In this document: in pieces, positions 28,561-42,604 of the stretch
Layout of the letters: every line of letters begins with the position of its first letter
How positions within the stretch are numbered: the first letter of the stretch is position 1
Origin: Yersinia intermedia
GTDB lineage: Bacteria > Pseudomonadota > Gammaproteobacteria > Enterobacterales > Enterobacteriaceae
DNA length: 64,000 bases
Direction of reading: 5' to 3'
Assembly: GCF_900635455.1 (NCBI RefSeq)
Contig: NZ_LR134116.1
Coordinates: 3,534,001-3,598,000 of the forward strand
Made by a program: the position numbers and the translations under genes
The notes under the pieces: generated by a model
What the model was told of the DNA's origin: nothing
Database searches by the model: none
What the model saw: only the letters and a program-made list of their open reading frames with translations

Positions 28561-28758
28561 GGGAGCCTCTTTATAGTTCTATATATAAATATTCGTCTGC
28601 CGCCAGTGTAACGGATAGCATAAACAGCGAGAAGCACTGTAATGAATAAGACATAAGACTTTTAGCTATTAATGCGGGCAGTTTGTGAGATGAGTTGTAA
28701 ATAACATGTAATGGTATTGCTAAAGATAATGAGATGGACTACAACAAATGTATCTCTC

Positions 28759-28775
28759 AACAGGTCAGACCTCCT
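28759..28775 (+). promoter_or_regulatory. FadR operator upstream of fadE
   Basis: AACAGGTCAGACCTCCT contains the palindromic AGGTCAGACCT core and closely matches the FadR site (reverse form AACAGGTCGGACCAGCT). It lies 20 bp upstream of the fadE start, where binding would block transcription or elongation until acyl-CoA releases FadR. Confidence 0.8.
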
Positions 28776-28794
28776 ACATCTCAGGAGCTTTATT

Positions 28795-31242
28795 ATGATG
28801 GTTCTTAGCATTGTTGCCTTGCTGGTTCTTATTGGTGTGCTGTTCTATCACCGGGTGAACCTCTATCTTAGTAGTTTGATTCTTGTCGTTTACACCGCCG
28901 CGATGGGGGCCTCGCAATTATGGTCATTCTGGGCATTATTGCCGCTGGTGATTGTTTTGCTGCCCCTGACGCTAACTCCGCTGCGTCAGTCACTGTTTTC
29001 TACGCCAGCATTGCGCATGTTCCGTAAAGTCATGCCAGCCATGTCACGCACCGAAAAAGAAGCGATTGATGCAGGCACCACTTGGTGGGAAGGTGATTTA
29101 TTCCAGGGCCAGCCTGACTGGAAGAAACTGCATAACTACCCAAAACCGCAGTTAACCGCCGAAGAACAAGCTTTTATTGATGGGCCGGTAGAAGAAGCCT
29201 GTCGTATGGCTAATGACTTCCAAATCACCCACGAACTGGCTGACTTGCCGCCAGAACTGTGGGCGTATCTGAAAGAACATCGCTTCTTTGCGATGATTAT
29301 CAAGAAAGAGTACGGCGGCCTTGATTTCTCAGCATATGCTCAGGCGCGTGTATTGCAAAAACTGTCTGGCGTGTCTGGCATTTTAGCCATCACTGTTGGC
29401 GTTCCTAACTCTCTCGGCCCCGGCGAATTGCTGCAACACTACGGTACTGAAGAGCAAAAAAATCATTATTTGCCTGGTTTGGCCCGTGGCGACGAGATCC
29501 CTTGTTTCGCCCTGACCAGCCCAGAAGCAGGTTCTGATGCCGGCGCAATCCCAGATACCGGCACCGTTTGTATGGGTGAATGGCAAGGCAAACAGGTACT
29601 GGGCATGCGCCTGACCTGGAATAAACGCTATATCACCCTTGCTCCGATCGCCACAGTGCTCGGACTGGCGTTCAAATTGTCTGACCCTGAACATCTGTTG
29701 GGCGATACCGTTGATTTAGGCATCACCTGTGCGCTGATCCCAACTAACACGCCTGGGGTGGAAATTGGTCGTCGTCACTTCCCACTGAATGTGCCGTTCC
29801 AAAATGGCCCGACCCGTGGCAACGATATCTTTGTGCCGATTGATTACATCATCGGCGGGCCAAAAATGGCCGGACAGGGCTGGCGCATGCTGGTGGAATG
29901 CCTGTCGGTTGGTCGCGGGATTACCTTGCCGTCCAACGCCACTGGCAGCTTGAAAAGTGTGGCGATGGGGATTGGTGCTTACGCCTATATACGTCGTCAG
30001 TTCAAAATCTCAATCGGTAAAATGGAAGGGATTGAAGAGCCGTTGGCACGAATCGCCGGTAATGCTTATGTGATGGACGCGGCGGCAACCTTAATTACCA
30101 GCGGCATTATGCTGGGTGAGAAACCGGCAGTGTTATCCGCTATCGTTAAATATCACTGTACCCACCGTGGTCAACGCGCCGTGATGGATGCGATGGACAT
30201 TGCGGGCGGTAAAGGGATCTGCCTTGGCCCAGCCAACTTCGTGGCCCGTGGCTATCAAGGTGCACCTATCGGTATCACCGTTGAAGGCGCTAACATTCTG
30301 ACCCGTAGTATGATTATCTTCGGTCAGGGGGCGATTCGCTGCCATCCGTTTGTACTGGATGAAATGGCAGCGGCACAATCCAATGATGTTGCCGCCTTCG
30401 ATAAGGCGCTGTTCGGTCATCTGGGCCATGTGGGTAGTAGCAAAGTCCGTAGCTTCTGGTTGGGGCTGACCAATGGCCGCACCAGTGCCACGCCAACCAA
30501 AGACAGCACTCGCCGTTATTACCAGCATCTGAACCGCCTGAGCGCCAATTTAGCTTTGCTCTCTGATGTCTCAATGGGGGTGTTGGGTGGCAGCCTGAAA
30601 CGTCGTGAACGTATTTCTGCCCGTTTGGGAGATATTCTCAGCCAAATGTATCTGGCGTCTGCAACACTGAAACGCTATGAAGACGAAGGCCGCCAAAAAG
30701 AAGATCTGCCACTGGTTCATTGGGGTGTGCAGGATGCCCTGCATCAGGCAGAACAGGCTCTGGATGATTTACTGCGCAACTTCCCAAATGGCATTATTGC
30801 CGGGTTAATGCGGTTAGTGGTCTTCCCGTTTGGGCGCGTGTATCAGGCACCGTCAGATCGTCTGGACCATCAATTAGCGCAGTTACTGCAAGTGCCATCA
30901 GCAACCCGCAGCCGTATTGGTCGTGGTCAATATCTGACACCGAGCGAGTTTAACCCGGTAGGTTTACTGGAAGCAGCGTTACAAGATGTGATTGCAGCAG
31001 AGCCAATTCATAAGCGCCTGAGTAAAGAAGCAGGTAAAAGCCTGCCATTTACTCGCCTGGATGTGCTGGCAAAACATGCGCTGGCTGAAGGGAAAATCAG
31101 TGCTGAAGAAGCCGCTATTTTGACTAAAGCAGAAGAGAGCCGCCTGCGTTCAATTAATGTCGATGAGTTTGCCGCGGATGCACTGGCAGCCAAACCAGTG
31201 GTAAAGCAGCCCACCAAACAACGGCAAACTGAAGCCGCGTAA
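28795..31242 (+). CDS. fadE: Acyl-CoA dehydrogenase FadE
   Basis: First oxidative step of fatty acid beta-oxidation, an 815-residue enzyme almost collinear with E. coli FadE (814). Two N-terminal membrane helices (about residues 2-65) anchor it; the dehydrogenase core includes [30 protein letters not shown] and [10 protein letters not shown]. The ATG at 28795 follows AGGAG by seven bases; the next codon is also ATG. The open frame upstream to 28711 crosses the FadR operator and is not coding. Ends with a strong terminator. Confidence 0.97.
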
Positions 31243-31274: not shown

Positions 31275-31301
31275 AAGCCTCCGCTTCAGGAGGCTTTTTT
31301 T
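31275..31301. terminator. Terminator between fadE and rscC
   Basis: AAGCCTCC (31275-31282) pairs with GGAGGCTT (31289-31296), followed by a run of seven T on the plus strand: a classical terminator for fadE. It lies 2 bp outside the convergent rscC stop. Confidence 0.9.
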
Positions 31302-31302
31302 A

Positions 31303-33153
31303 TCATCTTTCAGCCTGGCAATCATCTAACAACGCTCTGATAATCAAACCGAATTGCTCAGGTTTGCCGGAAAATAGTACATTGTCAGGCTGAATTTTTA
31401 GCAACTGGCAGCGTAAGCTATTACGCCACTCGGTATCGGTAATCAACCGTACTGTAACCGCAATGTACTCAGCCAAATCATGTGTAATCAGCTCCTCAGA
31501 CAATCCCAGCCGACGGAACAATCCTTCATCTATATGTTCGTGTACTTCAGCCCCGCTCAGACAAACACCGGGTAAGCCCTGACGCACTGTATCGACGATG
31601 CCATTAGTATTGCCGAAAGGAAAAGGATTAATAAACAGGTCACACTGATTAATGACCAATAAATAGTCCTGATAAGCCAAGTGCTCATAGATTTTAGCTT
31701 GAGGGATAACAGCATTAATTGCTTTTTCCATAACTCGATGGGTAATACCCCAGCAAAAACCCACCAGAAAATGAAATATAACCGGCGTTGATGTTCGTTG
31801 GGCTATTTCCGCGCAGGTGGCAATAAAGCGCGGGTTAATTTTCATCGCTGAGGCACAAACCGCAATATGTACCGCAGGTCGCTCATCGAAATGTTGTACC
31901 GGTTCTGGCGGGCGGATATTGGCAGGCGGCACATAGGGCAGGCAATCCTTGGGTAACGAAACCACTTTTTCGGAGAAACACCGGGGATCCCCCAGGTAAT
32001 CCTCTTCCACCAACACCGCATCAATATAGCTGGAATGGGTTGTTGCCGGATGGCCTAGTGCCATTATCTGTAAGGGCGCTAAGCGTAAATTAGTCAGTGC
32101 AATGGTGAGTGGAAACATCCCGACACTGGGGAAATAGATAACATCAGGGCGCAGTTTCTTTGCCAGCACAGCAATCGCCTCAACCGCCCCCGTCCGCTGG
32201 ACTTCGGTAAAATCATCAAAAACCTCACGGGTTGTGGCATCTGTTGCCTCAACAATAGTGGCACCATGAGTAGAAAACTGCTCACGCGCGGCGCGTAACG
32301 TGCTGGAATGGGTACGATAAATAGAATGACCGCTGTTAAACCATTCAAGAATAACCAGCATCAATGGTTTGCTACGTGATGGTGGGCGAGAGCAATTATC
32401 AGATAGCCCATTGTGAAGTAGAGTGTTACGTAGGTGAACATTAATACTGCGTTTTATGGCATGCTTTTCTGCCATATCAGCATAACTGCAATGCATATAA
32501 ACATCATGCAGGATACGTTCGGGCAAGCCCTCAAGGCTCTCCAGCGTTAACAGTTTTTCAGGTAACCACGCTAATAGCTGCTCACGTTTCGCGTGGCCTA
32601 CGGCGCTGGGTAAAATACGCGGCGACAGTAGCGCCAGAAACAGTGCTGCTGCCGCATGGGGATTAAATTGCCATAATATATCCGGCTGAAGCGGAATACC
32701 CGATTCAGGTAAATACATCAGGCAAAATTTTAGAAAATTATTGCGCTCAAAGCGCAGAGGATGAGCACATCCTTCCCCAGCTTGATTAAGGTTGGTAATC
32801 ACATGATCCGCATGACCAAACGGTGATGCGGCAAATATCAACGCGATCCAGCGATGGAAATTAATCAGTTGTAAAAAACCCTTATCTGATACCACAAAAC
32901 CAGGATCAGAAAGCAGGTTGCCAATCGCTGCGGCCAGGCGATTACAATAATGCTCCTGCTGTTGTATTGACTGTTGCTGAAGCGAAAAAACATCCCAACG
33001 ACCATATTGGGTATCCAGTTGGTCCAACATCAATACCAGTAATCGCCCCGCCGCCTCATAGCGCCGCACACAAACTAAAAACTCGAAATAAGGCAATGAA
33101 AACCCTGCCGACTTCTCCACCACTTGGGTTAATTCAACTGTTTTCTCCACCAT
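31303..33153 (-). CDS. rscC: HMW1C-family cytoplasmic protein N-glycosyltransferase
   Basis: A 616-residue GT41 enzyme of the HMW1C type, which transfers glucose or galactose from UDP-sugars onto Asn of N-X-S/T sequons in the cytoplasm before secretion. The N-terminal half is the alpha-helical domain; the C-terminal GT-B half carries the family signatures ALGHPATTHSSYIDAVLVEE (near residue 380), INPFPFGNTNGIVDTV (near 520) and a VCLSGAEVHEHIDEGLFRRLGL block. It is the third gene after rscB and rscA, 66 bp beyond rscA, so the adhesin is its obvious substrate. The start follows GGGGAG. The symbol follows the Y. enterocolitica rscBAC locus and is an inference from homology and order. Confidence 0.9.
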   Translation of the reverse strand: MVEKTVELTQVVEKSAGFSLPYFEFLVCVRRYEAAGRLLVLMLDQLDTQYGRWDVFSLQQQSIQQQEHYCNRLAAAIGNLLSDPGFVVSDKGFLQLINFHRWIALIFAASPFGHADHVITNLNQAGEGCAHPLRFERNNFLKFCLMYLPESGIPLQPDILWQFNPHAAAALFLALLSPRILPSAVGHAKREQLLAWLPEKLLTLESLEGLPERILHDVYMHCSYADMAEKHAIKRSINVHLRNTLLHNGLSDNCSRPPSRSKPLMLVILEWFNSGHSIYRTHSSTLRAAREQFSTHGATIVEATDATTREVFDDFTEVQRTGAVEAIAVLAKKLRPDVIYFPSVGMFPLTIALTNLRLAPLQIMALGHPATTHSSYIDAVLVEEDYLGDPRCFSEKVVSLPKDCLPYVPPANIRPPEPVQHFDERPAVHIAVCASAMKINPRFIATCAEIAQRTSTPVIFHFLVGFCWGITHRVMEKAINAVIPQAKIYEHLAYQDYLLVINQCDLFINPFPFGNTNGIVDTVRQGLPGVCLSGAEVHEHIDEGLFRRLGLSEELITHDLAEYIAVTVRLITDTEWRNSLRCQLLKIQPDNVLFSGKPEQFGLIIRALLDDCQAER

Positions 33154-33219
33154 TACCAGCTCCCCTTGTTACGCCGATATCACCGCTTATCTAGTAAATT
33201 TAGTGAGTTAAAAAGCCTG

Positions 33220-36200
33220 CTATTCTTGACCCGATATCTTAGGCAGAGGTTTCCACTTACCTACAATATACGTATCGCAAGGCGCCTTCTGGGAGGGGAC
33301 ACCCTCAGGGATACAAACTGCAATGCTGATATTGGCTGCGATATCATGCTCAGATTCGGTCACGATAGGTGGCGGTAAAGTTTGTGTTTCAAGGGAGTTG
33401 AGGATCTGGTTTCGTTTCATCAGCAACAAGCCAGGTTCAATCCCCTCCTCAGGCGGCGTTATCTGTTCTAAGCTCGTCCTCTCTATCGATTTACCCACAA
33501 AACTATTTTTATCAACCGGTTTGCCATTGATAGTCACATTTTCGCCAATATTCGCCGGCAAGGTTATAAACACCGGTGACCTATTTGAGCCGGTATTCCC
33601 GCTAAGCTCAATGTTAGTTACCGCTGCATCATCATCGAGGAAAATAGCGTGGTTATTAACGGAATTACCATTCACCCTACCACCACTAATTGGGCCGCCA
33701 ACATGCACGGCATGGCCATCATTAGCGGTATTACCATTAATGGTAGTATTGCCAGTGTTAGATACCGGCCCCGTTATCGCTACGCCATGCCCATCAATAG
33801 CGTTACCGGCTAAGGTGGTGTCATTCAGCGTATTGTTGCCGTCAAGCTGAACACCAGCGCCTTTATCACCGCTCGCATTGCCGGTCACCGTCAGCAGATC
33901 ATCCGGCCCCATGCCACTGAGCGAGGCGTTTTCACCAACATCAACACCGCTGCCGTTAGTGGTTTCCCCCTGTACCGCACTGCCATTGCTGCCAGTGAGG
34001 TTACCGGCGATCTCCACTCCTTTACCGTTCAGGCTGTTACCGTTGAGGATGGCGTTATCCAGATTACTGTCATTTACCACCTTGATGCCGCTGCCATTAG
34101 CTGATGTACCATTAACTGAGCCACCGCTGACCGCCCCTCCAAGCTGGACACCACTACCATTATCAGATTGACCACCAATCGTGGTATTACCTTCATTTTG
34201 CAGTAAGCCATTAATATCCACCCCGGTGCCGTTAGTGGCATTCCCTGTCAGCAAGGTGTTATCAAGGATATTGATACCGTTAAACTGCACGCCGGTACCA
34301 TTCTCTCCAGTAGCGTTGCCGGTGACATTGAGCAGATCATCCAGGCCGCCGCCCAGAATGATTTGTTTACCAATGTCCACCCCAGTACCATTAGTGGTAT
34401 CACCGTGCACGGCACTGCCATTACTGCCAGTGAGGTTACCGGCGATCTCCACCCCCTTGCCGTCAGGGCTGTTACCGTTAAGGGTGGCGTTATCCAGGTT
34501 ACTGTCATTTACCACCTTGATGCCGCTGCCATTAGCTGATGTACCAGTAACTGTGCCACCGCTGACTGCTCCTTCAAGCTGGATGCCATTGCCATTCTCA
34601 GATTGACCAGCAATCGTGGTATTACCTTCATTTTGCAGTAAGCCGTTAATATCTACCCCGGTGCCGTTAGTGGCATTCCCTGCCAGCGAGGTATTATCAA
34701 GGATATTGATACCGTCAAATTGTATCCCGGTGCCTTTTTCACCCGTCGCGTTGCCGGTGACATTGAGCAGATCGCCCAACCCGCCGCCAATGAGTCTAGT
34801 ATCACGGTTAACATCCACCCCAGTACCATTAGTGGTATCACCGTGCACTGCGCTGCCATTACTGCCAGTGAGATTACCGGCGATCTCCACCCCCTTGCCG
34901 TCAGAGCTGTTACCGTTCAGGAGAGTGGTGTTAAGTTGGGTATCACCATCCACGTTGACACCCGTACCGCTGTCTGAGGTGCCGCTGACCGTACCGCCAG
35001 CGATAGCCCCGTTCAACGCCACCCCATTGCCGCCAGTGGCAATACCCACCACGCGAGTATTGCCGTTATTCACCAGCGGACCGGTAATATCAACACCGGT
35101 GCCCTGAGTGGCGTTACCGTTCAGCATGGTGTTATCAAGGGTATTATTGCCCTCCAGTTGCACACCAGTGCCTTTCTCACCAGTGGCATTACCGCTGATA
35201 ACAAGCAGCTCGCCTGAGTCGCCACCCGTAAGAGTGGCATTTCTATCGATATACATTCCGATGCCGTTAACCACGTCACCCTGTACTGAGCTGCCGTAGC
35301 CACCTGACAGACGGCCCACGATCTCTACCCCTTTGCCATCTGTGCTATTCCCGACCAGCACAGTGTTGTTGAGCACCGTGTCGCCATTGACGCTGACCCC
35401 ACTACCAGCATCCGAAAGACCATTGATGCGGCTATTATCAAGCACACCATCTATGACTTGAACACCTGTGCCGCTGGTCGCAGCCCCATTCACCACACCG
35501 CCATCCAACAAGCCGTTGATCTGCACACCAATACCGCTACCGGAAGCGGTGCCCTTAAATACCGTATTGCCTTGGTTGGCGGATGAGCTGGTGATATCCA
35601 ATGCAATACCATCTACAGCCGAACCATTTAAACTGGTATTACTTAAGTCATTATTACCATTGAGTTTTATTCCGGTACCGATATCCGTTGTTGCCACACC
35701 GTTTAGCGTCAGCAAGTCGGTTTCACTGGTGCCAGTGACATGTAAATTCGCTGCTATCTCAATGCCATAACCGGTACCATTAGTCGTACCATTAATCACA
35801 CTCTGATGAATGCCCTTTATATCATTGGCTACTTCTACACCAATGCCATTAGTGCTACTGCCAGTGAGCGTGGCATTATCCAGTACGACATGAGTGACAA
35901 TATTAGAACCCGGCAATGGATCAATTTTCACACCACTGCCATTAATTGATGCTCCTGTCAGTGTGGCATCAGTAATAGTGGCATTGCCGCTAATGCGCAG
36001 CCCGTCAGCATGGGTTGAATTCCCGGTGACATTAATACGATTAACTTGATGCTCTGCACTGAAGAGGTGAACACCGATGTTATCGCGACTGGTTCCTTCA
36101 ATCGTGACCGGGCCAGTACCATTGTTAACTACACCTGAAATAGCAACCCCAGTATCCGCGACACTACTGCCTTTAATGAGAGTGTCACCCTCACCACTTA

Positions 36201-39200
36201 ATACCACGCTATTATTATTGGTAGAGAAGTTAATGCCGACACCGCGGGTTGAGCGCCCTTCCATTTTGAGAGAGCCATTATTATTTATCGTTAGCTGAGC
36301 CGCATCTGCATAGGTGATCCCCTCGCCACCAACGATAACTTGTGCCCCTTTATTTTGACCGAGAAAAGACAATTGGCTATCCTTGGCAATATTAAGTGTA
36401 TTGGCACCATTAAAATCAATTCCTTTGCGGGTAGCACCAGAGCCTTCTGTTTCGCCTTGAAACGCGATATTCCCTTCAACCGACAAGGTACTATTAGCTC
36501 TAAAACCAATGCCTGAGCCCTGCGTTGTATTAAATGCTTTACCGATCATCGAGCCATTTTTGGCTTTTATAGTGATATTACCGCCCAGGCTTAATGCAGT
36601 GCTTAATGAAGTAGGTAAAGCGGCCTGTGTTTCAGAATAAACAGCAACATTACCCGCGATGGCATTCAGTTCCACATCAGTAAAATAAACATTTCTCGCC
36701 CCCGCTGACAGACCATTGATATCAATATTATGCTCAGTGGCTGTCAGCGTCGTATTTGATAAATAGACTGATGGCCGAGTAGCATCCCCCGTATCAGCTT
36801 TACCGTTTAAGGTGATATTTCCTTGAGCAATAAGATTATTACGTGAAGTATTTGAATCTCCTTGAATAACAATTCCTTCCCCATCACCGGTGGCAACCCC
36901 CGTCAGATTAATATCTTTTTTAGCATTGAAAATGGTATTTGGTTTAATCAAAATACCTTCTTTTTGGGATGTTACATTGGCATTAATGTCACCTGTTGTT
37001 GCAGTAATATTAGATTCACGTATCGTCACCCCGGCAGAGCTAGTCGAGTTAGAGGCAAAGTTAACCTCATTTGCTGTGAGATCTACATTGGCCCAGGTTA
37101 TGCCTTTTGACCCATTGTTATTTATCGTGAAATTTCCGCTTTTAGCTTCAATATTAGCCCCATCAATGCCAACCCCTGCCCCTGAAGTATTGCCATGGTT
37201 ATTGGCTGTTATTGATATCTCTTTCCCCGCAGTGATATTTATTCTGTTAGATAAGGTTCCATTGATTGTTATGGCCTCCACAGAGGGTGCTGAGGTATTG
37301 GTAACTAATAATATATCTTGACCAGCCGTCATTGCGCCATTACCGCTGAACCTGAAGGCTTTATGCGTGGCAGACGTCAAATTGGTTTTAATATCTTTTT
37401 TAGCCGTAAGAACGGTATTCGTCATCAATACAGCTTCATTATTGATGATATTACCATTCATCAAAATATTATCAGCACTGATACTGACATTGTTGAATGG
37501 ACTGCCTTTGACTCCACTGATGTTTAAATTAAAATCGCCGCTCTCCGCTTTTATATTGGCAAAATCCGCAACAACAGTAGTGCCAATTTCTGTGCCTTCA
37601 TTAACCGCCACCATCGATATATTACCACCGGCAGTCATATTAACCTGAACACTACTGGAGTTACCACTTATCCTGATGGCATCAGCACCTGCATAGGTAG
37701 AGTTACTGGTCATCCCCTGCAAATTGATATCGCCACTGGCGTTTACATTAGTGTTACCTGAGATCCAAATCCCTTTATTGGTCGTAGTGGCATTCACATT
37801 AATATCACCAGCAGTTGCCGTAAGATCACCATCTCTGAATAATAAACCATCAACCCCTGTGACGTTTATTCCAAAATTAACATTACCCCCACCAACTTGT
37901 GAATCCCGTATCCGCAATCCATAATTAGCTTGTGTTAAAATGTCACCATTGACATCAAACAAAATGTTACCAGACTTAGAGGAAACATTCCCATTAACAA
38001 TATCTACCCCGCCATATGTACTGCCGTTGGCATTTGCTTGGAATGTAATATCTTTATCACCGATAATAGTTACGTTAGCGAACGTGCCCATCCAGGAAAT
38101 TTTAGAATTAGATTTAAGAGCAAATAAAATATTACCCACCCCCGTAAGGATAGAGTCCTCAGACATATCAACACCACGCCACCCTTGCCCATTAGCATTA
38201 CTGCTTTCACCGGTTATGCGCGTTTCACCTGCCACAGAAATATTAGCGGCATTACTAATACTCACCCCGATGTGGGATGCTACTGCGGCATTTCCTTCAA
38301 GAGTAAGGTTGCCAACCTCATAGCGACCTCCCTGTATAGCAATACGTGTTGCGCTTTTATCATCGGCATGTTTCGCCAGCAAGTCCCCATTATTTAATAA
38401 CACATCAACATTATTTAATGTAATAACAGAGTCTGCAGTGGAATTGCCTGCCAATAAATTAAGATTCAGTTTCGCAGCACGGGTAGAAATATTATTGTTA
38501 ATGACAATATTGCCGTCAGCATGTAATGTCAACGTGGCATCACCACCCGCTGTTTTATTGATATCAGCATCTAGCGTAATATTGCACCAGCGGCAATTCG
38601 TCAAACTGTTATTATTGGTCGTCACCGTCACATTTGTGCCGAGATCGAGTTGAGTATTGATACTGCTATTCAATATTTGCGCGACGTTAGCCGTTGGCAT
38701 GAAAACCTGTGCATTGACCCCATATCCGGCAGGGATATCCCCTGCCTGAACGGATGAACCACTCTGTGCACCACTACCAACAATGTTGACTTCTGCCGGA
38801 TCGAGTAACCAACTGCCATTGCTACCCGCAGTCGCACTTGCATCAACGTGACCAAAAGCCTGTAAATTACGCTTACTGGATGTTTCTACTTGCCCGCCAT
38901 TGCCTGACTGTAGCCCACCACGGGCATGAATATCGCCATAGAAGCCGGTGTAACTTTCAGACCATAGCACGGCGATACCACCAGTCCCCTGCCCCAAAGC
39001 CGACACATCAATAACTGCGCCTTTATCCATGACGACTGAGCGTGAATTTTTTATCGCATTATTTTTACCCTGCCAACCACCACCAACCAGTACTTTGCCA
39101 CCGCCCTCAGCACCATGTGCATCAATCTTGCTTCCGGCGGCCAAGTGCACATTTTCGCCTTGCAGGATAACACTCCCGCCACGACCATACTGACTACTGG

Positions 39201-40188
39201 CATCTACAATGCCTTGCTGGCGTACCACGCCTTCACTACCACCATCGAGATAAATAACGCCATTTTTTTCAGACAAACCGCGCGCCTGCAAAATACCGGT
39301 GTTATCAATCACGGTATTCATTAACATCTCCTTGCCACGCGCGGTCAGTTGGATAACGCCACCATCAGCCTGAATCAGCCCACCGTTTTGCAGCAAAGCA
39401 CTGACTTGCTCACCCTGAACTTGCACGCCCAACAAACTACCGTGATCCAGATGAAGGGTGACGCGACTCCCGCTGGCAAACGCCACTTTCCCTTGTGGGG
39501 TGTTGATAACACCGGAAGACTGATTATCAACCTGCTGACCAATCAGTGCGATATAACCGCCTTTGGTGGTATGTAAATTGGCCTGATTAACCAACTTACC
39601 TTCATGTCTTCGGCTGGTCAGCGTATAAGTTCCAGAAATAAAGTCATTATTAGACATGGCCTTAGTACTGGCGACTAAACCACCGACATCAACTTGTGCA
39701 CCGCGACCAAACAGAATGCCATTCGGGTTAAGCAAAAAGACCTGACCATTTGCTTTTAGATTGCCATATATCTGCGATGCATCGCGGCCAAGTACCCGAT
39801 TTAGGGCAATACTCTGCTGCCCTGGCTGGTTATAAATAACACTGTTCCCCTGGGCGATATCAAAACTCCCCCAATTGATCGCCAGCTTATTGCTTTGCTG
39901 AGTCACAGTAAGGGTGGTGTTATGGACCTCCAACCGGCCTTGGCCGATAACAATATTACCGTTAACGGGCAGCGAGGGATGGGCAAATACCAGTAGCGGT
40001 AATGTACCAAGAGCTAATCCCGTCATTATTGCCAGATGGCTGAGTATTCCCGCTTTCGTATTACTATCATTAATGACCTTTTTGCCGATAGACGAAAATG
40101 ATCGTCCGTAAGCTCGGGTAAATTCTCCCACCGCAATTAAGCATCCCAACCGACGGCAGAAAATAAGTTTGTATAATTTACTGTTCAT
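33220..40188 (-). CDS. rscA: Large two-partner-secretion adhesin (TpsA, HMW1/EtpA/RscA type)
   Basis: A 2322-residue secreted beta-helix protein. Residues 1-68 are an extended signal peptide (MNSKLYKLIFCRRLGCLIAV...GRSFSSIGKK, then a hydrophobic core ending LLVFAHPSLP). The TPS secretion domain follows, with NPNGILFGRGAQVDVGGLVAST near residue 155. The middle is a Thr/Asn-rich haemagglutinin-type helix. The last third has tandem repeats of about 146 residues (VEIAGNLTGSNGSAVHG...), each loaded with N-X-S/T sequons. The C-terminus contains CIPEGVPSQKAPC, a cysteine pair placed like the HMW1 pair that tethers the adhesin to its transporter. It lies between its TpsB (40 bp) and its glycosyltransferase (66 bp). 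Receptor unknown. Confidence 0.92.
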   Translation of the reverse strand: MNSKLYKLIFCRRLGCLIAVGEFTRAYGRSFSSIGKKVINDSNTKAGILSHLAIMTGLALGTLPLLVFAHPSLPVNGNIVIGQGRLEVHNTTLTVTQQSNKLAINWGSFDIAQGNSVIYNQPGQQSIALNRVLGRDASQIYGNLKANGQVFLLNPNGILFGRGAQVDVGGLVASTKAMSNNDFISGTYTLTSRRHEGKLVNQANLHTTKGGYIALIGQQVDNQSSGVINTPQGKVAFASGSRVTLHLDHGSLLGVQVQGEQVSALLQNGGLIQADGGVIQLTARGKEMLMNTVIDNTGILQARGLSEKNGVIYLDGGSEGVVRQQGIVDASSQYGRGGSVILQGENVHLAAGSKIDAHGAEGGGKVLVGGGWQGKNNAIKNSRSVVMDKGAVIDVSALGQGTGGIAVLWSESYTGFYGDIHARGGLQSGNGGQVETSSKRNLQAFGHVDASATAGSNGSWLLDPAEVNIVGSGAQSGSSVQAGDIPAGYGVNAQVFMPTANVAQILNSSINTQLDLGTNVTVTTNNNSLTNCRWCNITLDADINKTAGGDATLTLHADGNIVINNNISTRAAKLNLNLLAGNSTADSVITLNNVDVLLNNGDLLAKHADDKSATRIAIQGGRYEVGNLTLEGNAAVASHIGVSISNAANISVAGETRITGESSNANGQGWRGVDMSEDSILTGVGNILFALKSNSKISWMGTFANVTIIGDKDITFQANANGSTYGGVDIVNGNVSSKSGNILFDVNGDILTQANYGLRIRDSQVGGGNVNFGINVTGVDGLLFRDGDLTATAGDINVNATTTNKGIWISGNTNVNASGDINLQGMTSNSTYAGADAIRISGNSSSVQVNMTAGGNISMVAVNEGTEIGTTVVADFANIKAESGDFNLNISGVKGSPFNNVSISADNILMNGNIINNEAVLMTNTVLTAKKDIKTNLTSATHKAFRFSGNGAMTAGQDILLVTNTSAPSVEAITINGTLSNRINITAGKEISITANNHGNTSGAGVGIDGANIEAKSGNFTINNNGSKGITWANVDLTANEVNFASNSTSSAGVTIRESNITATTGDINANVTSQKEGILIKPNTIFNAKKDINLTGVATGDGEGIVIQGDSNTSRNNLIAQGNITLNGKADTGDATRPSVYLSNTTLTATEHNIDINGLSAGARNVYFTDVELNAIAGNVAVYSETQAALPTSLSTALSLGGNITIKAKNGSMIGKAFNTTQGSGIGFRANSTLSVEGNIAFQGETEGSGATRKGIDFNGANTLNIAKDSQLSFLGQNKGAQVIVGGEGITYADAAQLTINNNGSLKMEGRSTRGVGINFSTNNNSVVLSGEGDTLIKGSSVADTGVAISGVVNNGTGPVTIEGTSRDNIGVHLFSAEHQVNRINVTGNSTHADGLRISGNATITDATLTGASINGSGVKIDPLPGSNIVTHVVLDNATLTGSSTNGIGVEVANDIKGIHQSVINGTTNGTGYGIEIAANLHVTGTSETDLLTLNGVATTDIGTGIKLNGNNDLSNTSLNGSAVDGIALDITSSSANQGNTVFKGTASGSGIGVQINGLLDGGVVNGAATSGTGVQVIDGVLDNSRINGLSDAGSGVSVNGDTVLNNTVLVGNSTDGKGVEIVGRLSGGYGSSVQGDVVNGIGMYIDRNATLTGGDSGELLVISGNATGEKGTGVQLEGNNTLDNTMLNGNATQGTGVDITGPLVNNGNTRVVGIATGGNGVALNGAIAGGTVSGTSDSGTGVNVDGDTQLNTTLLNGNSSDGKGVEIAGNLTGSNGSAVHGDTTNGTGVDVNRDTRLIGGGLGDLLNVTGNATGEKGTGIQFDGINILDNTSLAGNATNGTGVDINGLLQNEGNTTIAGQSENGNGIQLEGAVSGGTVTGTSANGSGIKVVNDSNLDNATLNGNSPDGKGVEIAGNLTGSNGSAVHGDTTNGTGVDIGKQIILGGGLDDLLNVTGNATGENGTGVQFNGINILDNTLLTGNATNGTGVDINGLLQNEGNTTIGGQSDNGSGVQLGGAVSGGSVNGTSANGSGIKVVNDSNLDNAILNGNSLNGKGVEIAGNLTGSNGSAVQGETTNGSGVDVGENASLSGMGPDDLLTVTGNASGDKGAGVQLDGNNTLNDTTLAGNAIDGHGVAITGPVSNTGNTTINGNTANDGHAVHVGGPISGGRVNGNSVNNHAIFLDDDAAVTNIELSGNTGSNRSPVFITLPANIGENVTINGKPVDKNSFVGKSIERTSLEQITPPEEGIEPGLLLMKRNQILNSLETQTLPPPIVTESEHDIAANISIAVCIPEGVPSQKAPCDTYIVGKWKPLPKISGQE
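33600..35838 (-). repeat. Tandem 435-510 bp repeats within rscA
   Basis: Homologous units each begin with the codons for V-E-(I/V)-(A/V): at 35838, 35328, 34890, 34452 and 34017 (minus strand). The spacings are 510, 438, 438 and 435 bp, i.e. 170, 146, 146 and 145 residues. The units starting at 34890 and 34452 are nearly identical; the first is longer and the last decays toward the C-terminus. Such near-identical DNA repeats invite copy-number change by recombination. Confidence 0.9.
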
Positions 40189-40228
40189 TATTCACGTCCA
40201 TTAAATCTGACAAATATGCCGATAAGCG

Positions 40229-42022
40229 CTAAAACATCTTGTAAGCACTAAGCCAGAATTGGTCATTATCCGGTTGAGGAGTTGCAGCCTGGCCGGTTCG
40301 ATGTGCCCAAGTCAGATTCAAGGAATAATCTGCCGGACGAGAGAGAGTGATATAGGCACCAAAGCCAGACAGGTTGATATTATTCCCCGCCATGCCTGCG
40401 ATAGGTTGGCGATAATAAGACCCCCACCCTTGGTCAAAGAATGCAGCAAAAGTGATTTGGTTCCCCATACCAGTCCAAGCCGGGAATGGGGGTTGCCAGT
40501 GGGTACGTAATTCAGTGGTGAAAAGTGTGCCTTTATCCACCGCCCCTTCACCAATACCGTAAGCCCTAACCGCCAATGGCCCACCCAACAACAGCTTTTG
40601 TGAGCTATCAAGATTTTTACTGGCTATTTGGCCGGTAAATTGATTGAAGAAAGAAAAATAAGAGCCAAAACCCTGATCATGACCGGCATGATAATTAAAA
40701 CGGGCAAAAGCGCCGCCAATACCAGTCAAGGAATTCATACTCTGACTGAATTCATCATCTAATGACAGATGGCCTGCGGTACCCAGTAAATTAAAATTAC
40801 TTAGCCCACGAGGTACTGCGGTAAACGTGCCATAAATGCCCAATTCACCCGCATCCAGATTGCGTTTTTGTTCCGGTAGCATAATGAGTGAGTCACGCAT
40901 TTTGCTCTGATAATACCCGGTACTCACATCAATTCTGGCCGCCGAATTGCGGATCCACGGATGGCGTAAATTAACCCCCCAGCTATTAGAATGACCACGC
41001 GCATCCAATACCTCGAAAGGCCCCTTAAGGGTATAATCCAAATAGCTATAATTTAGCGCAGCACGGGTACCATACGTATTAATTGGGAAGTTATAATCCA
41101 ACAAGCCATTGAATACATCTGCCGAGCTGGATAAAATAAAATTAGCTCGTAACTGATCCCCCCAACCCATCATATTATTCAGCGCGCCACCTACTAATAA
41201 CCGATTATGACCAGAGTAATCATTGCCCTGATTATCTACGCCGAGGTACCCCATCGCGGTTTGACTGGAGGTAATATCAGCATAGACCCTTGTCATTCCA
41301 GATTGGGTTCCTGGTTTTAATGCCAAAGCAGCATCAACCCCTGGGATATCATTAAGAATAAGGTTGGTTCGTTCAAGGCGAGATAATTCAGCCGGAGAAG
41401 CAGCACAATCTTTATTGCCAAAAAAACCCACTTCTTTGCTACAACTATTACTTTCAATCACCGCAGTAACAAAATCAGTATTCAACCGACTCTGATTATT
41501 GACCTCCGGTTTATCTAATCTGCCAGCAATAATACGAACGATGACAACACCGTCACGGATAGCTTGTGGTGGCAATATTGCCTGAGTGGCAACAAATCCT
41601 TGTTGTCGATAAAAGCGAGTTACCGCTAATGTCATGGCTTGTAAATCATTAAAGGTTAATTGCTGCCCCAACCAAGGCGTAATTACGGCACGTAGTGCTT
41701 TATTATTTCCGTTACTGTGCCGCAATAACTGGGTATCCCCCTCGAATCTAACCTCACGCAACATGATACTTCCCGCCGAGTTAGAACCGCCGAACGATGC
41801 AGGAGGGAGCAAAGGTGGAAGCTTGATTTCAGCTTCCTGTGGCGCACGCAATGGCACCGGTGTTGTTTGCCGTATTTCGTTACTAATTACACCTGCATTC
41901 GGTACATTTATGACCTGAGGAGCAGCAACGACCTGTGAGCAAAAAAAAAGGATAAACATTAGTGCGTTGGAACTCAATTTAGTCTGAAACCGTGATTTTT
42001 CTGGATAATAAAAATATCGCAT
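40229..42022 (-). CDS. rscB: Two-partner-secretion outer membrane transporter (TpsB, HMW1B/EtpB type)
   Basis: A 597-residue FhaC/ShlB-family pore that exports the RscA adhesin. It has a signal peptide (to about residue 34, VVAAPQV), a proline-rich linker, POTRA domains (about 85-240; IMLREVRFEGDTQLL, VIVRIIAGRLDKPEV) and a C-terminal beta-barrel ending in aromatic ...WLSAYKMF. The barrel-lid motif reads LAVRAYGIGEG, the VRGY-type signature of the superfamily. The order B-A-C matches the etpBAC and rscBAC loci rather than Haemophilus hmwABC. First gene of the operon, behind a long AT-rich leader. Confidence 0.92.
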   Translation of the reverse strand: MRYFYYPEKSRFQTKLSSNALMFILFFCSQVVAAPQVINVPNAGVISNEIRQTTPVPLRAPQEAEIKLPPLLPPASFGGSNSAGSIMLREVRFEGDTQLLRHSNGNNKALRAVITPWLGQQLTFNDLQAMTLAVTRFYRQQGFVATQAILPPQAIRDGVVIVRIIAGRLDKPEVNNQSRLNTDFVTAVIESNSCSKEVGFFGNKDCAASPAELSRLERTNLILNDIPGVDAALALKPGTQSGMTRVYADITSSQTAMGYLGVDNQGNDYSGHNRLLVGGALNNMMGWGDQLRANFILSSSADVFNGLLDYNFPINTYGTRAALNYSYLDYTLKGPFEVLDARGHSNSWGVNLRHPWIRNSAARIDVSTGYYQSKMRDSLIMLPEQKRNLDAGELGIYGTFTAVPRGLSNFNLLGTAGHLSLDDEFSQSMNSLTGIGGAFARFNYHAGHDQGFGSYFSFFNQFTGQIASKNLDSSQKLLLGGPLAVRAYGIGEGAVDKGTLFTTELRTHWQPPFPAWTGMGNQITFAAFFDQGWGSYYRQPIAGMAGNNINLSGFGAYITLSRPADYSLNLTWAHRTGQAATPQPDNDQFWLSAYKMF

Positions 42023-42576
42023 AAAATACGCCTGCTTAGCATTATGATAACACCAGTTTAAATAATAAAACCCTCCGTTATTTAATACTGGCCCGCATGA
42101 TTATTTTTTAATTATCAAGTTAATTATTTCATTAAACCCAATATAGGATAAAATTAGAATGGTGTGGAAATTGAATAAATACAAACACCAAAAAGAGTAA
42201 TCTCTGTTGTTTCAGACTAATAGCCAGTTCATATTTATAACAAATAGTTATTTATGGTAGATATACCATTATTGACATGAAATAATAATAATCTGCCCTT
42301 ACCTATACAACCTTAAATTGATTTTATTTTATATAGATAGGGTGGTAACAATACAACCAAATGAAAACACACTTTATAATTAACACTCATCAACCTAATT
42401 ACACTAATTGCAACTAAATAAAGTAAAATAATAAGCCATAAAGAACGCCAATAATGACAACAAAAAAATCAATATTTTTTAATCTAGCCTAAACAGAAGC
42501 AACTTACTTAAATATGAATAATGCTATTCCACATATTTATAATCACAGCAAGTGATAGTGATTTAAATAATAAAAA
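42023..42576. other. AT-rich upstream region of the rscBAC operon
   Basis: About 550 bp without a gene and, by eye, well below 35% GC (stretches such as 42080-42520 are almost all A/T). It should hold the rscB promoter. I looked for tandem heptamers like those driving phase variation of Haemophilus hmw genes and saw none, and no LysR-type regulator gene is adjacent. Composition suggests H-NS silencing, which is inference. Confidence 0.6.
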
Positions 42577-42604
42577 AACCCCGTATTTCTTAACGGGGTT
42601 ACTA
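42571..42604 (-). terminator. Terminator of mtnK
   Basis: AACCCCGT (42577-42584) pairs with ACGGGGTT (42593-42600). On the minus strand it is followed by TTTTTTATTATTT, 39 bp after the mtnK stop. Confidence 0.9.

What the first reader, a model, noticed from the sequence alone, without database searches (positions are those of the whole stretch)
31303..42022. HMW1-type glycosylated adhesin system (rscB-rscA-rscC) with a very large TpsA
A TpsB pore, a 2322-residue TpsA and an HMW1C-family N-glycosyltransferase form one minus-strand operon with 40- and 66-bp gaps. The order B-A-C is that of etpBAC (enterotoxigenic E. coli) and of rscBAC described in Y. enterocolitica, not that of Haemophilus hmwABC. 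It is a self-contained cytoplasmic glycosylation plus secretion module. The LysR-type regulator RscR linked to rscBAC in the literature (recalled, not checked) is not adjacent here.
Basis: partly seen in the sequence, partly recalled or inferred. Interest (0 to 1): 0.72.

Follow-up and report, generated by a model that had tools for sequence, protein, structure and literature searches.

The report
Yersinia glycosylated giant surface adhesin operon
This is the known rscBAC operon of Yersinia, which makes a long surface protein, the pore that exports it and an enzyme expected to coat it with single sugars; the new part is that the protein carries a sugar-site-rich repeat block whose copy number differs between species and strains.

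Summary
A minus-strand operon in a Yersinia chromosome (closest named RscA: Y. intermedia) encodes RscB (597 aa), RscA (2322 aa) and RscC (616 aa), with gaps of 40 and 66 bp. It is the rscBAC locus between fadE and mtnK. RscC is found in 21 of 25 Yersinia species; three of the other four have an empty fadE-mtnK site. RscC belongs to the HMW1C/GT41 family, on an enterobacterial (EtpC-like) branch, and keeps the pocket residues compared. The size of RscA is ordinary for the genus (1630-3952 aa). Its passenger has 97 of 237 Asn in N-X-S/T sequons, against 3 of 31 in residues 1-450 and 11 of 68 in pieces of other TpsA proteins of this genome. A C-terminal cysteine pair like HMW1's anchor is in 18 of 18 orthologues examined. 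New here: a 145-146-residue, six-coil beta-helix module carrying 6-13 sequons. One relative has 14 tandem copies (3952 aa, 245 sequons), and two near-identical protein pairs differ by one module. Glycosylation is inferred, not shown. Verdict: new member of a known kind, with module-number variation that I did not find described.

The parts
40229..42022 (-). rscB: TpsB outer-membrane pore (POTRA_2 + ShlB barrel), 597 aa
33220..40188 (-). rscA: TpsA exoprotein, 2322 aa (ESPR, TPS domain, beta-helix passenger)
39229..40188 (-). RscA residues 1-320: extended signal peptide and TPS secretion domain, poor in sequons
33883..35193 (-). RscA residues 1666-2102: three 145-146-residue six-coil modules with 9, 12 and 13 sequons
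33277..33315 (-). RscA residues 2292-2304: C-terminal cysteine pair, candidate surface anchor
31303..33153 (-). rscC: HMW1C-like cytoplasmic N-glycosyltransferase (GT41), 616 aa
42023..42638 (.). AT-rich (26.9% GC) intergenic region upstream of rscB, presumed promoter region (no promoter shown)
42237..42251 (-). ATAAC-N5-GTTAT palindrome (T-N11-A form) in a block conserved among 11 aligned Yersinia upstream regions; strict pattern at that place in 7 of 11; candidate regulator site (inference)
31275..31296 (.). terminator-like hairpin between convergent rscC and fadE (consensus match only)
42577..42600 (.). terminator-like hairpin after mtnK, separating it from rscB (consensus match only)

Best explanation
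This is the chromosomal rscBAC operon of Yersinia, a three-part glycosylated two-partner secretion system. Inferred sequence of events: RscC uses a UDP-hexose in the cytoplasm to put single hexoses on many Asn-X-Ser/Thr sites of RscA. The extended signal peptide takes RscA through Sec, and its TPS domain engages the RscB POTRA domain. The passenger then threads through the RscB barrel and folds outside as a long three-sided beta-helix. The C-terminal cysteine pair forms a small loop that holds RscA at the pore. The 145-146-residue six-coil module lets the protein lengthen or shorten, and gain or lose about ten acceptor sites, one module at a time by recombination. Shown here: domains, order, residue conservation, sequon excess, cysteine pairs, module number, predicted fold. 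Inferred: glycosylation, anchoring, adhesion, recombination.
For: Domains. RscC is 42% identical to the ApNGT sequence and matches PDB 3q3e at E=4e-144. Residues equivalent to AaNGT R177, H214, D215 and to ApNGT K441, H277, R281 are kept in all 22 Yersinia rows; N521 and D525 in 20 of 22, the two exceptions fitting the broken gene of G001. RscA residues 4-625 match EtpA of known structure, E=1e-137. Sequons: 100 found against 46.5 (sd 5.3) in shuffles. S/T at N+2 is 40.9% against 18.8% background; D as centre is flat (17.5%), Q gives 11.4%. 97 of 237 passenger Asn in sequons against 11 of 68 in pieces of three other TpsA proteins of the same genome, Fisher p=1.5e-4. Residues 1-450: 3 of 31, as the HMW1 pro-piece is unglycosylated (PMC3983070). 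C-terminal Cys pair in 18 of 18 orthologues examined. AlphaFold2 of RscA 1497-2322: beta-helix with pLDDT mostly above 90 from about fragment residue 50 to 710. In it sequon Asn lie outside strands in 25 of 39 cases against 12 of 42 for other Asn, p=0.002.
Against: No direct evidence of any glycan. Within the module, sequon columns are no better conserved than other S/T or N columns (p=0.62 and 0.48; 41 modules, L143 left out). One control TpsA piece alone has 9 of 31 Asn in sequons, and the comparison over the same stretch of RscA is weak (16 of 49 against 11 of 68, p=0.046). RscC misses the NCBIfam equivalog cut-off. The C-terminal anchor region is modelled with low confidence. Related enzymes in other genera often lie without TPS genes nearby.
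Confidence: 0.86

Rival explanations
1. RscC is a general cytoplasmic N-glycosyltransferase that modifies many proteins; RscA is only one of its acceptors.
For: Orphan HMW1C-like enzymes modify other surface proteins (PMC3983070). Of 80 loci with an RscC relative, 41 showed neither TpsA nor TpsB in the DNA held, some of it short. A paper on Y. enterocolitica reports Schiff-positive Yops and cites an NGT homologue (PMC8615707, passages). One other TpsA piece here has 9 of 31 Asn in sequons.
Against: Within Yersinia RscC goes with RscA: B-A-C read in 18 of 21 RscC-bearing species, and in the 4 species without RscC a close RscB is missing too. RscA is strongly enriched in sequons.
Confidence: 0.2
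2. RscA is released like EtpA and works as a bridge away from the cell, not as an anchored adhesin.
For: The best match among solved structures is EtpA, described as an extracellular, secreted adhesin (PMC11463764, passages). RscC falls on the enterobacterial EtpC-like side of the tree.
Against: C-terminal Cys pair 9-20 residues apart in 18 of 18 orthologues, like HMW1 C1518/C1528, which is needed to tether HMW1 (PMC3983070). Whether EtpA has such a pair was not examined.
Confidence: 0.25
3. Sequon richness is a by-product of Gly/Asn/Thr-rich beta-helix turns, and RscC acts mainly as a chaperone.
For: No extra conservation at sequon columns; sequon Asn sit in turns.
Against: The S/T excess is specific to N+2 and absent around D or Q. 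Pocket residues are conserved.
Confidence: 0.1
4. RscA is a contact-dependent inhibition or haemolysin-type TpsA.
For: Same TPS/ShlB families.
Against: Only 66 bp between rscA and rscC, no room for an immunity gene there; the C-terminus is a conserved Cys-pair tail and not a variable toxin domain.
Confidence: 0.03

Closest known systems
RscBAC of Yersinia enterocolitica (named in PMC3983070 and PMC5422565; original 2001 paper not held)
   Same: Order B-A-C; RscC of Y. enterocolitica 87% identical; RscA 80-81% over residues 1-640 for four of the six Y. enterocolitica-named or close entries. That these database entries are the published RscC/RscA is inferred from each genome having one RscC locus.
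   Different: This allele has its own module number (3 near-full modules); a Y. enterocolitica-named protein of 2065 aa has 1.
EtpBAC of enterotoxigenic E. coli
   Same: Order B-A-C by name; EtpA-like secretion domain and a beta-helix with similar coil-turn sequences; related NGT.
   Different: EtpA has 228-residue repeats (PMC11463764), RscA 145-146. RscC relatives were found in 109 plasmid records (64 Escherichia, 20 Salmonella), all under 60% identity; rscBAC here is chromosomal.
HMW1ABC of Haemophilus influenzae
   Same: Three-part system, sequon-poor secretion domain, C-terminal Cys pair.
   Different: hmw1C lies downstream of hmw1B (PMC3983070), i.e. order A-B-C. ApNGT and 26 of 30 order-search rows carry Q where RscC has F466; the H. 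influenzae enzyme itself was not aligned.
ApNGT / AaNGT (PDB 3q3e, 8p0o)
   Same: Fold family and substrate-pocket residues.
   Different: ApNGT is an orphan enzyme (PMC3983070); Q469 is replaced by F in RscC.

Membership tests
HMW1C-like N-glycosyltransferases (GT41) | HMW1C_N + HMW1_D2 + GT41 domains | tested here: met
   all above Pfam cut-offs
HMW1C-like N-glycosyltransferases (GT41) | Sequon-recognising Arg/Asp dyad and sugar-nucleotide residues | tested here: met
   R179, D217, H216, K438, N517, D521; role of Arg/Asp/His from PMC10507012 section 9; the roles of the others are recalled
HMW1C-like N-glycosyltransferases (GT41) | Transfers hexose from UDP-hexose to Asn of N-X-S/T | not testable with these tools
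   needs enzyme assay or mass spectrometry
NCBIfam NF049992 UDP-glucose:protein N-beta-glucosyltransferase (narrow equivalog) | score of 1000 bits or more | tested here: not met
   592.8 bits; not filed under this equivalog
Two-partner secretion (type Vb) | TpsA with ESPR/TPS domain next to TpsB with POTRA and ShlB barrel | tested here: met
rscBAC locus of Yersinia | Orthologous genes in order B-A-C at the fadE-mtnK site | tested here: met
rscBAC locus of Yersinia | Control by the LysR-type regulator RscR | not testable with these tools
   RscR sequence not at hand; no LysR gene found in the window
HMW1-type anchored TpsA | C-terminal disulfide loop holding the protein at TpsB | tested here: inconclusive
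   Cys pair in 18 of 18; bond and anchoring not shown

The most novel reading that the evidence does not exclude
RscA is a length- and glycan-dose-variable surface protein. A 438-bp, six-coil module with about 6-13 N-glycosylation sites is gained and lost one unit at a time, so that strains of one species differ by single modules and one lineage has expanded to 14 copies (3952 aa, 245 sequons). The NGT in the same operon would make this one of the most heavily N-glycosylated bacterial proteins known, with reach and sugar load set by recombination.
Probability: 0.5. Interest if true: 0.6.

Novelty: new member of a known kind. Interest (0 to 1): 0.42.

Why it matters
It places a little-studied glycosylated adhesin system as a widespread chromosomal locus of Yersinia (21 of 25 species). 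It also offers a natural series of proteins with 0 to 14 near-full acceptor modules plus the matching enzyme. That series would make an open question testable: how NGTs choose and process many sites in one acceptor, and what the sugars do for folding, anchoring and adhesion.

Tried and rejected
Extra conservation at sequon columns: not found. F466 as a peculiarity of this genome: rejected; F is in all 22 Yersinia rows, 19 of 25 sampled homologue rows and 23 of 80 genome-contig rows, 12 of those 80 being Yersinia. RscA as an outsize protein: rejected. Concerted evolution of modules: within-protein identity is 84% against 63% between proteins, but only 68.8% against 60.1% once the 14-module protein is left out, so the effect is modest. 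A regulator next door: none. Promoter scan: 29 promoter-like sites against 25.4 expected, so nothing usable. The palindrome upstream of rscB is not rare as such: three 5-5-5 inverted repeats in the region against 1.3 expected. Structure library search: never accepted. The original rscBAC paper and the ApNGT (2011), NGT-specificity (2014) and etpBAC (2006) papers were not held. In one search one of four control TpsA loci was dropped because the script found no anchor motif. From the tree I left out all Yersinia rows, L041, L122, L139, L132-L134 and rows under 560 aa, and of the 100 homologues P0021-P0120 I used 25.
Full report
What is there. The three ORFs are at the stated coordinates with gaps of 66 and 40 bp. 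Pfam gives POTRA_2+ShlB for RscB, ESPR+TPS for RscA and HMW1C_N+HMW1_D2+GT41 for RscC. Terminator-like hairpins lie between rscC and fadE (31275-31296) and after mtnK (42577-42600); they are consensus matches, 17 found in the region against 10.4 in shuffles. The window is part of a one-contig, 4.757-Mb genome. The closest named RscA is from Y. intermedia, 95% over residues 1-640 and 92.9% over the full 2322 residues when compared with an entry that matches the window 100% over 1-640. So the genome is a Yersinia, Y. intermedia or a near relative.

The locus in the genus. RscC has a match in 21 of 25 Yersinia species searched; in two (G001, G005) it is broken. A close RscB (69% identity or more) occurs in the same 21 genomes; of the other four, two have only distant matches of 27-29% identity and two have none. 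fadE is in 25 of 25 and mtnK in 24 of 25. In G019, G009 and G016 the fadE and mtnK matches lie only 120-136 bp apart, an empty site; G021 lacks mtnK. BLAST of the window's two flanks finds both in G019 and G016 and the fadE side alone in G009. Order B-A-C was read from DNA in the window, in ten named loci (L031-L040; L039 has a run of undetermined bases inside rscA) and in seven stretches (L143-L149): 18 of 21 RscC-bearing species. L041 has the order with broken A and C, L030 is cut by its contig end, and G005 was not read through. Outside Yersinia the linkage is looser: of all 80 loci, 28 had both a TpsA and a TpsB (11 of them Yersinia), 11 had one of them and 41 neither, some with short DNA.

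Upstream region. Upstream of rscB lie 616 bp of 26.9% GC. Eleven of twelve upstream regions were aligned (L033 was too short). A block there, with an ATAAC-N5-GTTAT palindrome of the T-N11-A form in the window, is well kept; the strict pattern was found at that place in 7 of 11. Inverted repeats of that form are not rare in this AT-rich DNA (3 against 1.3 expected), so the argument rests on conservation. That it binds RscR is a guess; the T-N11-A rule for LysR-type proteins is recalled.

RscC. It matches ApNGT (3q3e, E=4e-144) and AaNGT (8p0o). The AaNGT residues R177 and D215, which recognise Thr(+2) and whose change to Ala inactivates (PMC10507012 section 9), are R179 and D217 here. They and H216, H276, R280 and K438 are kept in all 22 Yersinia rows; N517 and D521 in 20 of 22, the two exceptions fitting the broken gene of G001 (the 22 rows come from 20 genomes, G001 and G005 twice each). 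ApNGT Q469, near the +1 residue, whose change to Ala raised activity (same section), is F466, in a GFCWG motif in 20 of 22 rows. Counts for that column elsewhere: F in 19 of 25 sampled homologue rows, F in 23 and Q in 52 of 80 genome-contig rows (12 of them Yersinia), Q in 26 of 30 order-search rows (3 of them Yersinia, with F). In a quick tree of 131 rows, RscC lies with 24 of the 25 sampled homologue rows in a starred branch of 37 rows, with a Cedecea protein as sister, on the other side from ApNGT. The deep split itself is weak (74), the root is a midpoint, and long branches are flagged. RscC scores 592.8 bits against the narrow NCBIfam NGT equivalog, whose cut-off is 1000.

RscA. It has 100 sequons against 46.5 expected from shuffles (sd 5.3). 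Shuffles do not allow for the repeats, so I used other controls. S/T at N+2 is 40.9% (36.8% in the non-modular part, residues 451-1350) against 18.8% overall; around D it is 17.5% and around Q 11.4%. 97 of 237 Asn after residue 450 are in sequons against 3 of 31 before it (p=6e-4). Pieces of three of the four other TPS-domain proteins of this genome give 11 of 68, but one alone has 9 of 31. In the ten orthologues the counts in residues 1-450 are 1-5 and in the passenger 52-94. This mirrors HMW1, whose pro-piece is not glycosylated (PMC3983070, parts 1 and 2 of 3 read). A C-terminal Cys pair is in 18 of 18 orthologues, 9-20 residues apart, and an internal CxxC near residue 532 in 17 of 18 by the pattern used. 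In the database set 27 of 28 have the C-terminal pair; the exception, P0126, ends without it and may be cut short. Of 16 linked TpsA proteins from other genera printed, 15 have no such pair; L082 has one.

The module. Residues 1412-2128 fall into 27 segments that begin with a G-rich turn motif; 23 of 27 carry at least one sequon (two segments are about two coils long). Six coils make a unit of 145-146 residues (435-438 bp). AlphaFold2 on residues 1497-2322, with an alignment of 10 sequences including the query, gives a continuous beta-helix, mean pLDDT 86.7, with about three strands per coil in my reading of the DSSP string, followed by a low-confidence tail with a helix and two short strands next to the cysteines. 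Sequon Asn are outside strands in 25 of 39 cases, other Asn in 12 of 42 (fragment residues 161-720, p=0.002). EtpA's solved structure is likewise a three-sided beta-helix, with 228-residue repeats (PMC11463764, passages). I could not run the structure-library comparison.

Module number varies. Of 20 proteins given to, 18 have at least one near-full module, 1 to 14 per protein, with 6-13 sequons per module; L149 and P0144 have none at that threshold, though partial matches remain, and some entries may be the same protein twice. L143 (G012) has 14 tandem modules (438 bp x 14.2, 90% matches), 3952 aa and 245 sequons. Twelve pairs were compared. P0146 (unnamed) and P0147 (named Y. pseudotuberculosis) are 99.2% identical and differ by exactly one 146-residue block. 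P0131 and P0130 (both named Y. enterocolitica) are 97.7% identical and differ by 146 net. P0133 and P0130 (89.7%) differ mainly by 147. Two close pairs (P0121/P0122, P0149/P0150) have equal length, and the rest are too divergent or have other gaps as well. Among 28 proteins of 26 distinct lengths, length follows sequon number (r=0.89) and module cover (r=0.78), and lengths cluster at steps near 145 (mean resultant 0.73 at 145-146, 0.69 at 140 and 150, 0.19-0.25 at 100, 120 and 180), without correction for relatedness. Short-read assemblies may collapse such arrays. Sequon columns in the module are not better conserved than others, so selection acts, if at all, on the number of sites and not on single sites.

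Literature. rscBAC is listed, with RscR as its regulator, in PMC5422565 (passages); PMC3983070 lists RscC of Y. enterocolitica as HMW1C-like in a TPS locus. PMC2877744 noted the Yersinia homologues next to TPS genes in 2010 (passages). PMC8615707 says Y. enterocolitica has an NGT homologue that transfers glucose and galactose, citing a paper I could not read (passages), so activity of the Yersinia enzyme may already be in print. In my searches (open-licence papers, mostly seen as listings) I saw no description of the 146-residue module or its copy-number change in Yersinia; subscription papers are not covered.

Verdict. An ordinary, well-supported member of a known kind of system, with an extra feature, modular length and acceptor-site variation, that deserves a direct test.

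Noticed in passing
L143:1932-13790: RscA orthologue of 3952 aa with 14 tandem 146-residue modules and 245 N-X-S/T sequons in a three-contig Yersinia assembly.
   Followed up: yes
window 42237-42251: Palindrome ATAAC-N5-GTTAT in a conserved block about 215-230 bp upstream of rscB; candidate regulator site.
   Followed up: partly
RscA residues 532-535 (window 38584-38595): Internal CxxC motif at the start of the passenger in 17 of 18 orthologues by one pattern; role unknown.
   Followed up: partly
window 28711-31242: fadE as listed starts upstream of the NCBIfam FadE model (which begins at residue 31), and 19 of 25 genomes have a TGA within the matched span, so the true start is probably a later Met; the place of the TGA was not checked.
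   Followed up: no
L135-L138: Four small genomes (2.2-2.5 Mb, one genus of the same order) carry a divergent HMW1C-like enzyme on a long branch.
   Followed up: no
plasmid records: RscC/EtpC-like proteins on several E. coli and Salmonella plasmids are annotated 'cobalt ABC transporter permease', which looks like a misannotation.
   Followed up: no
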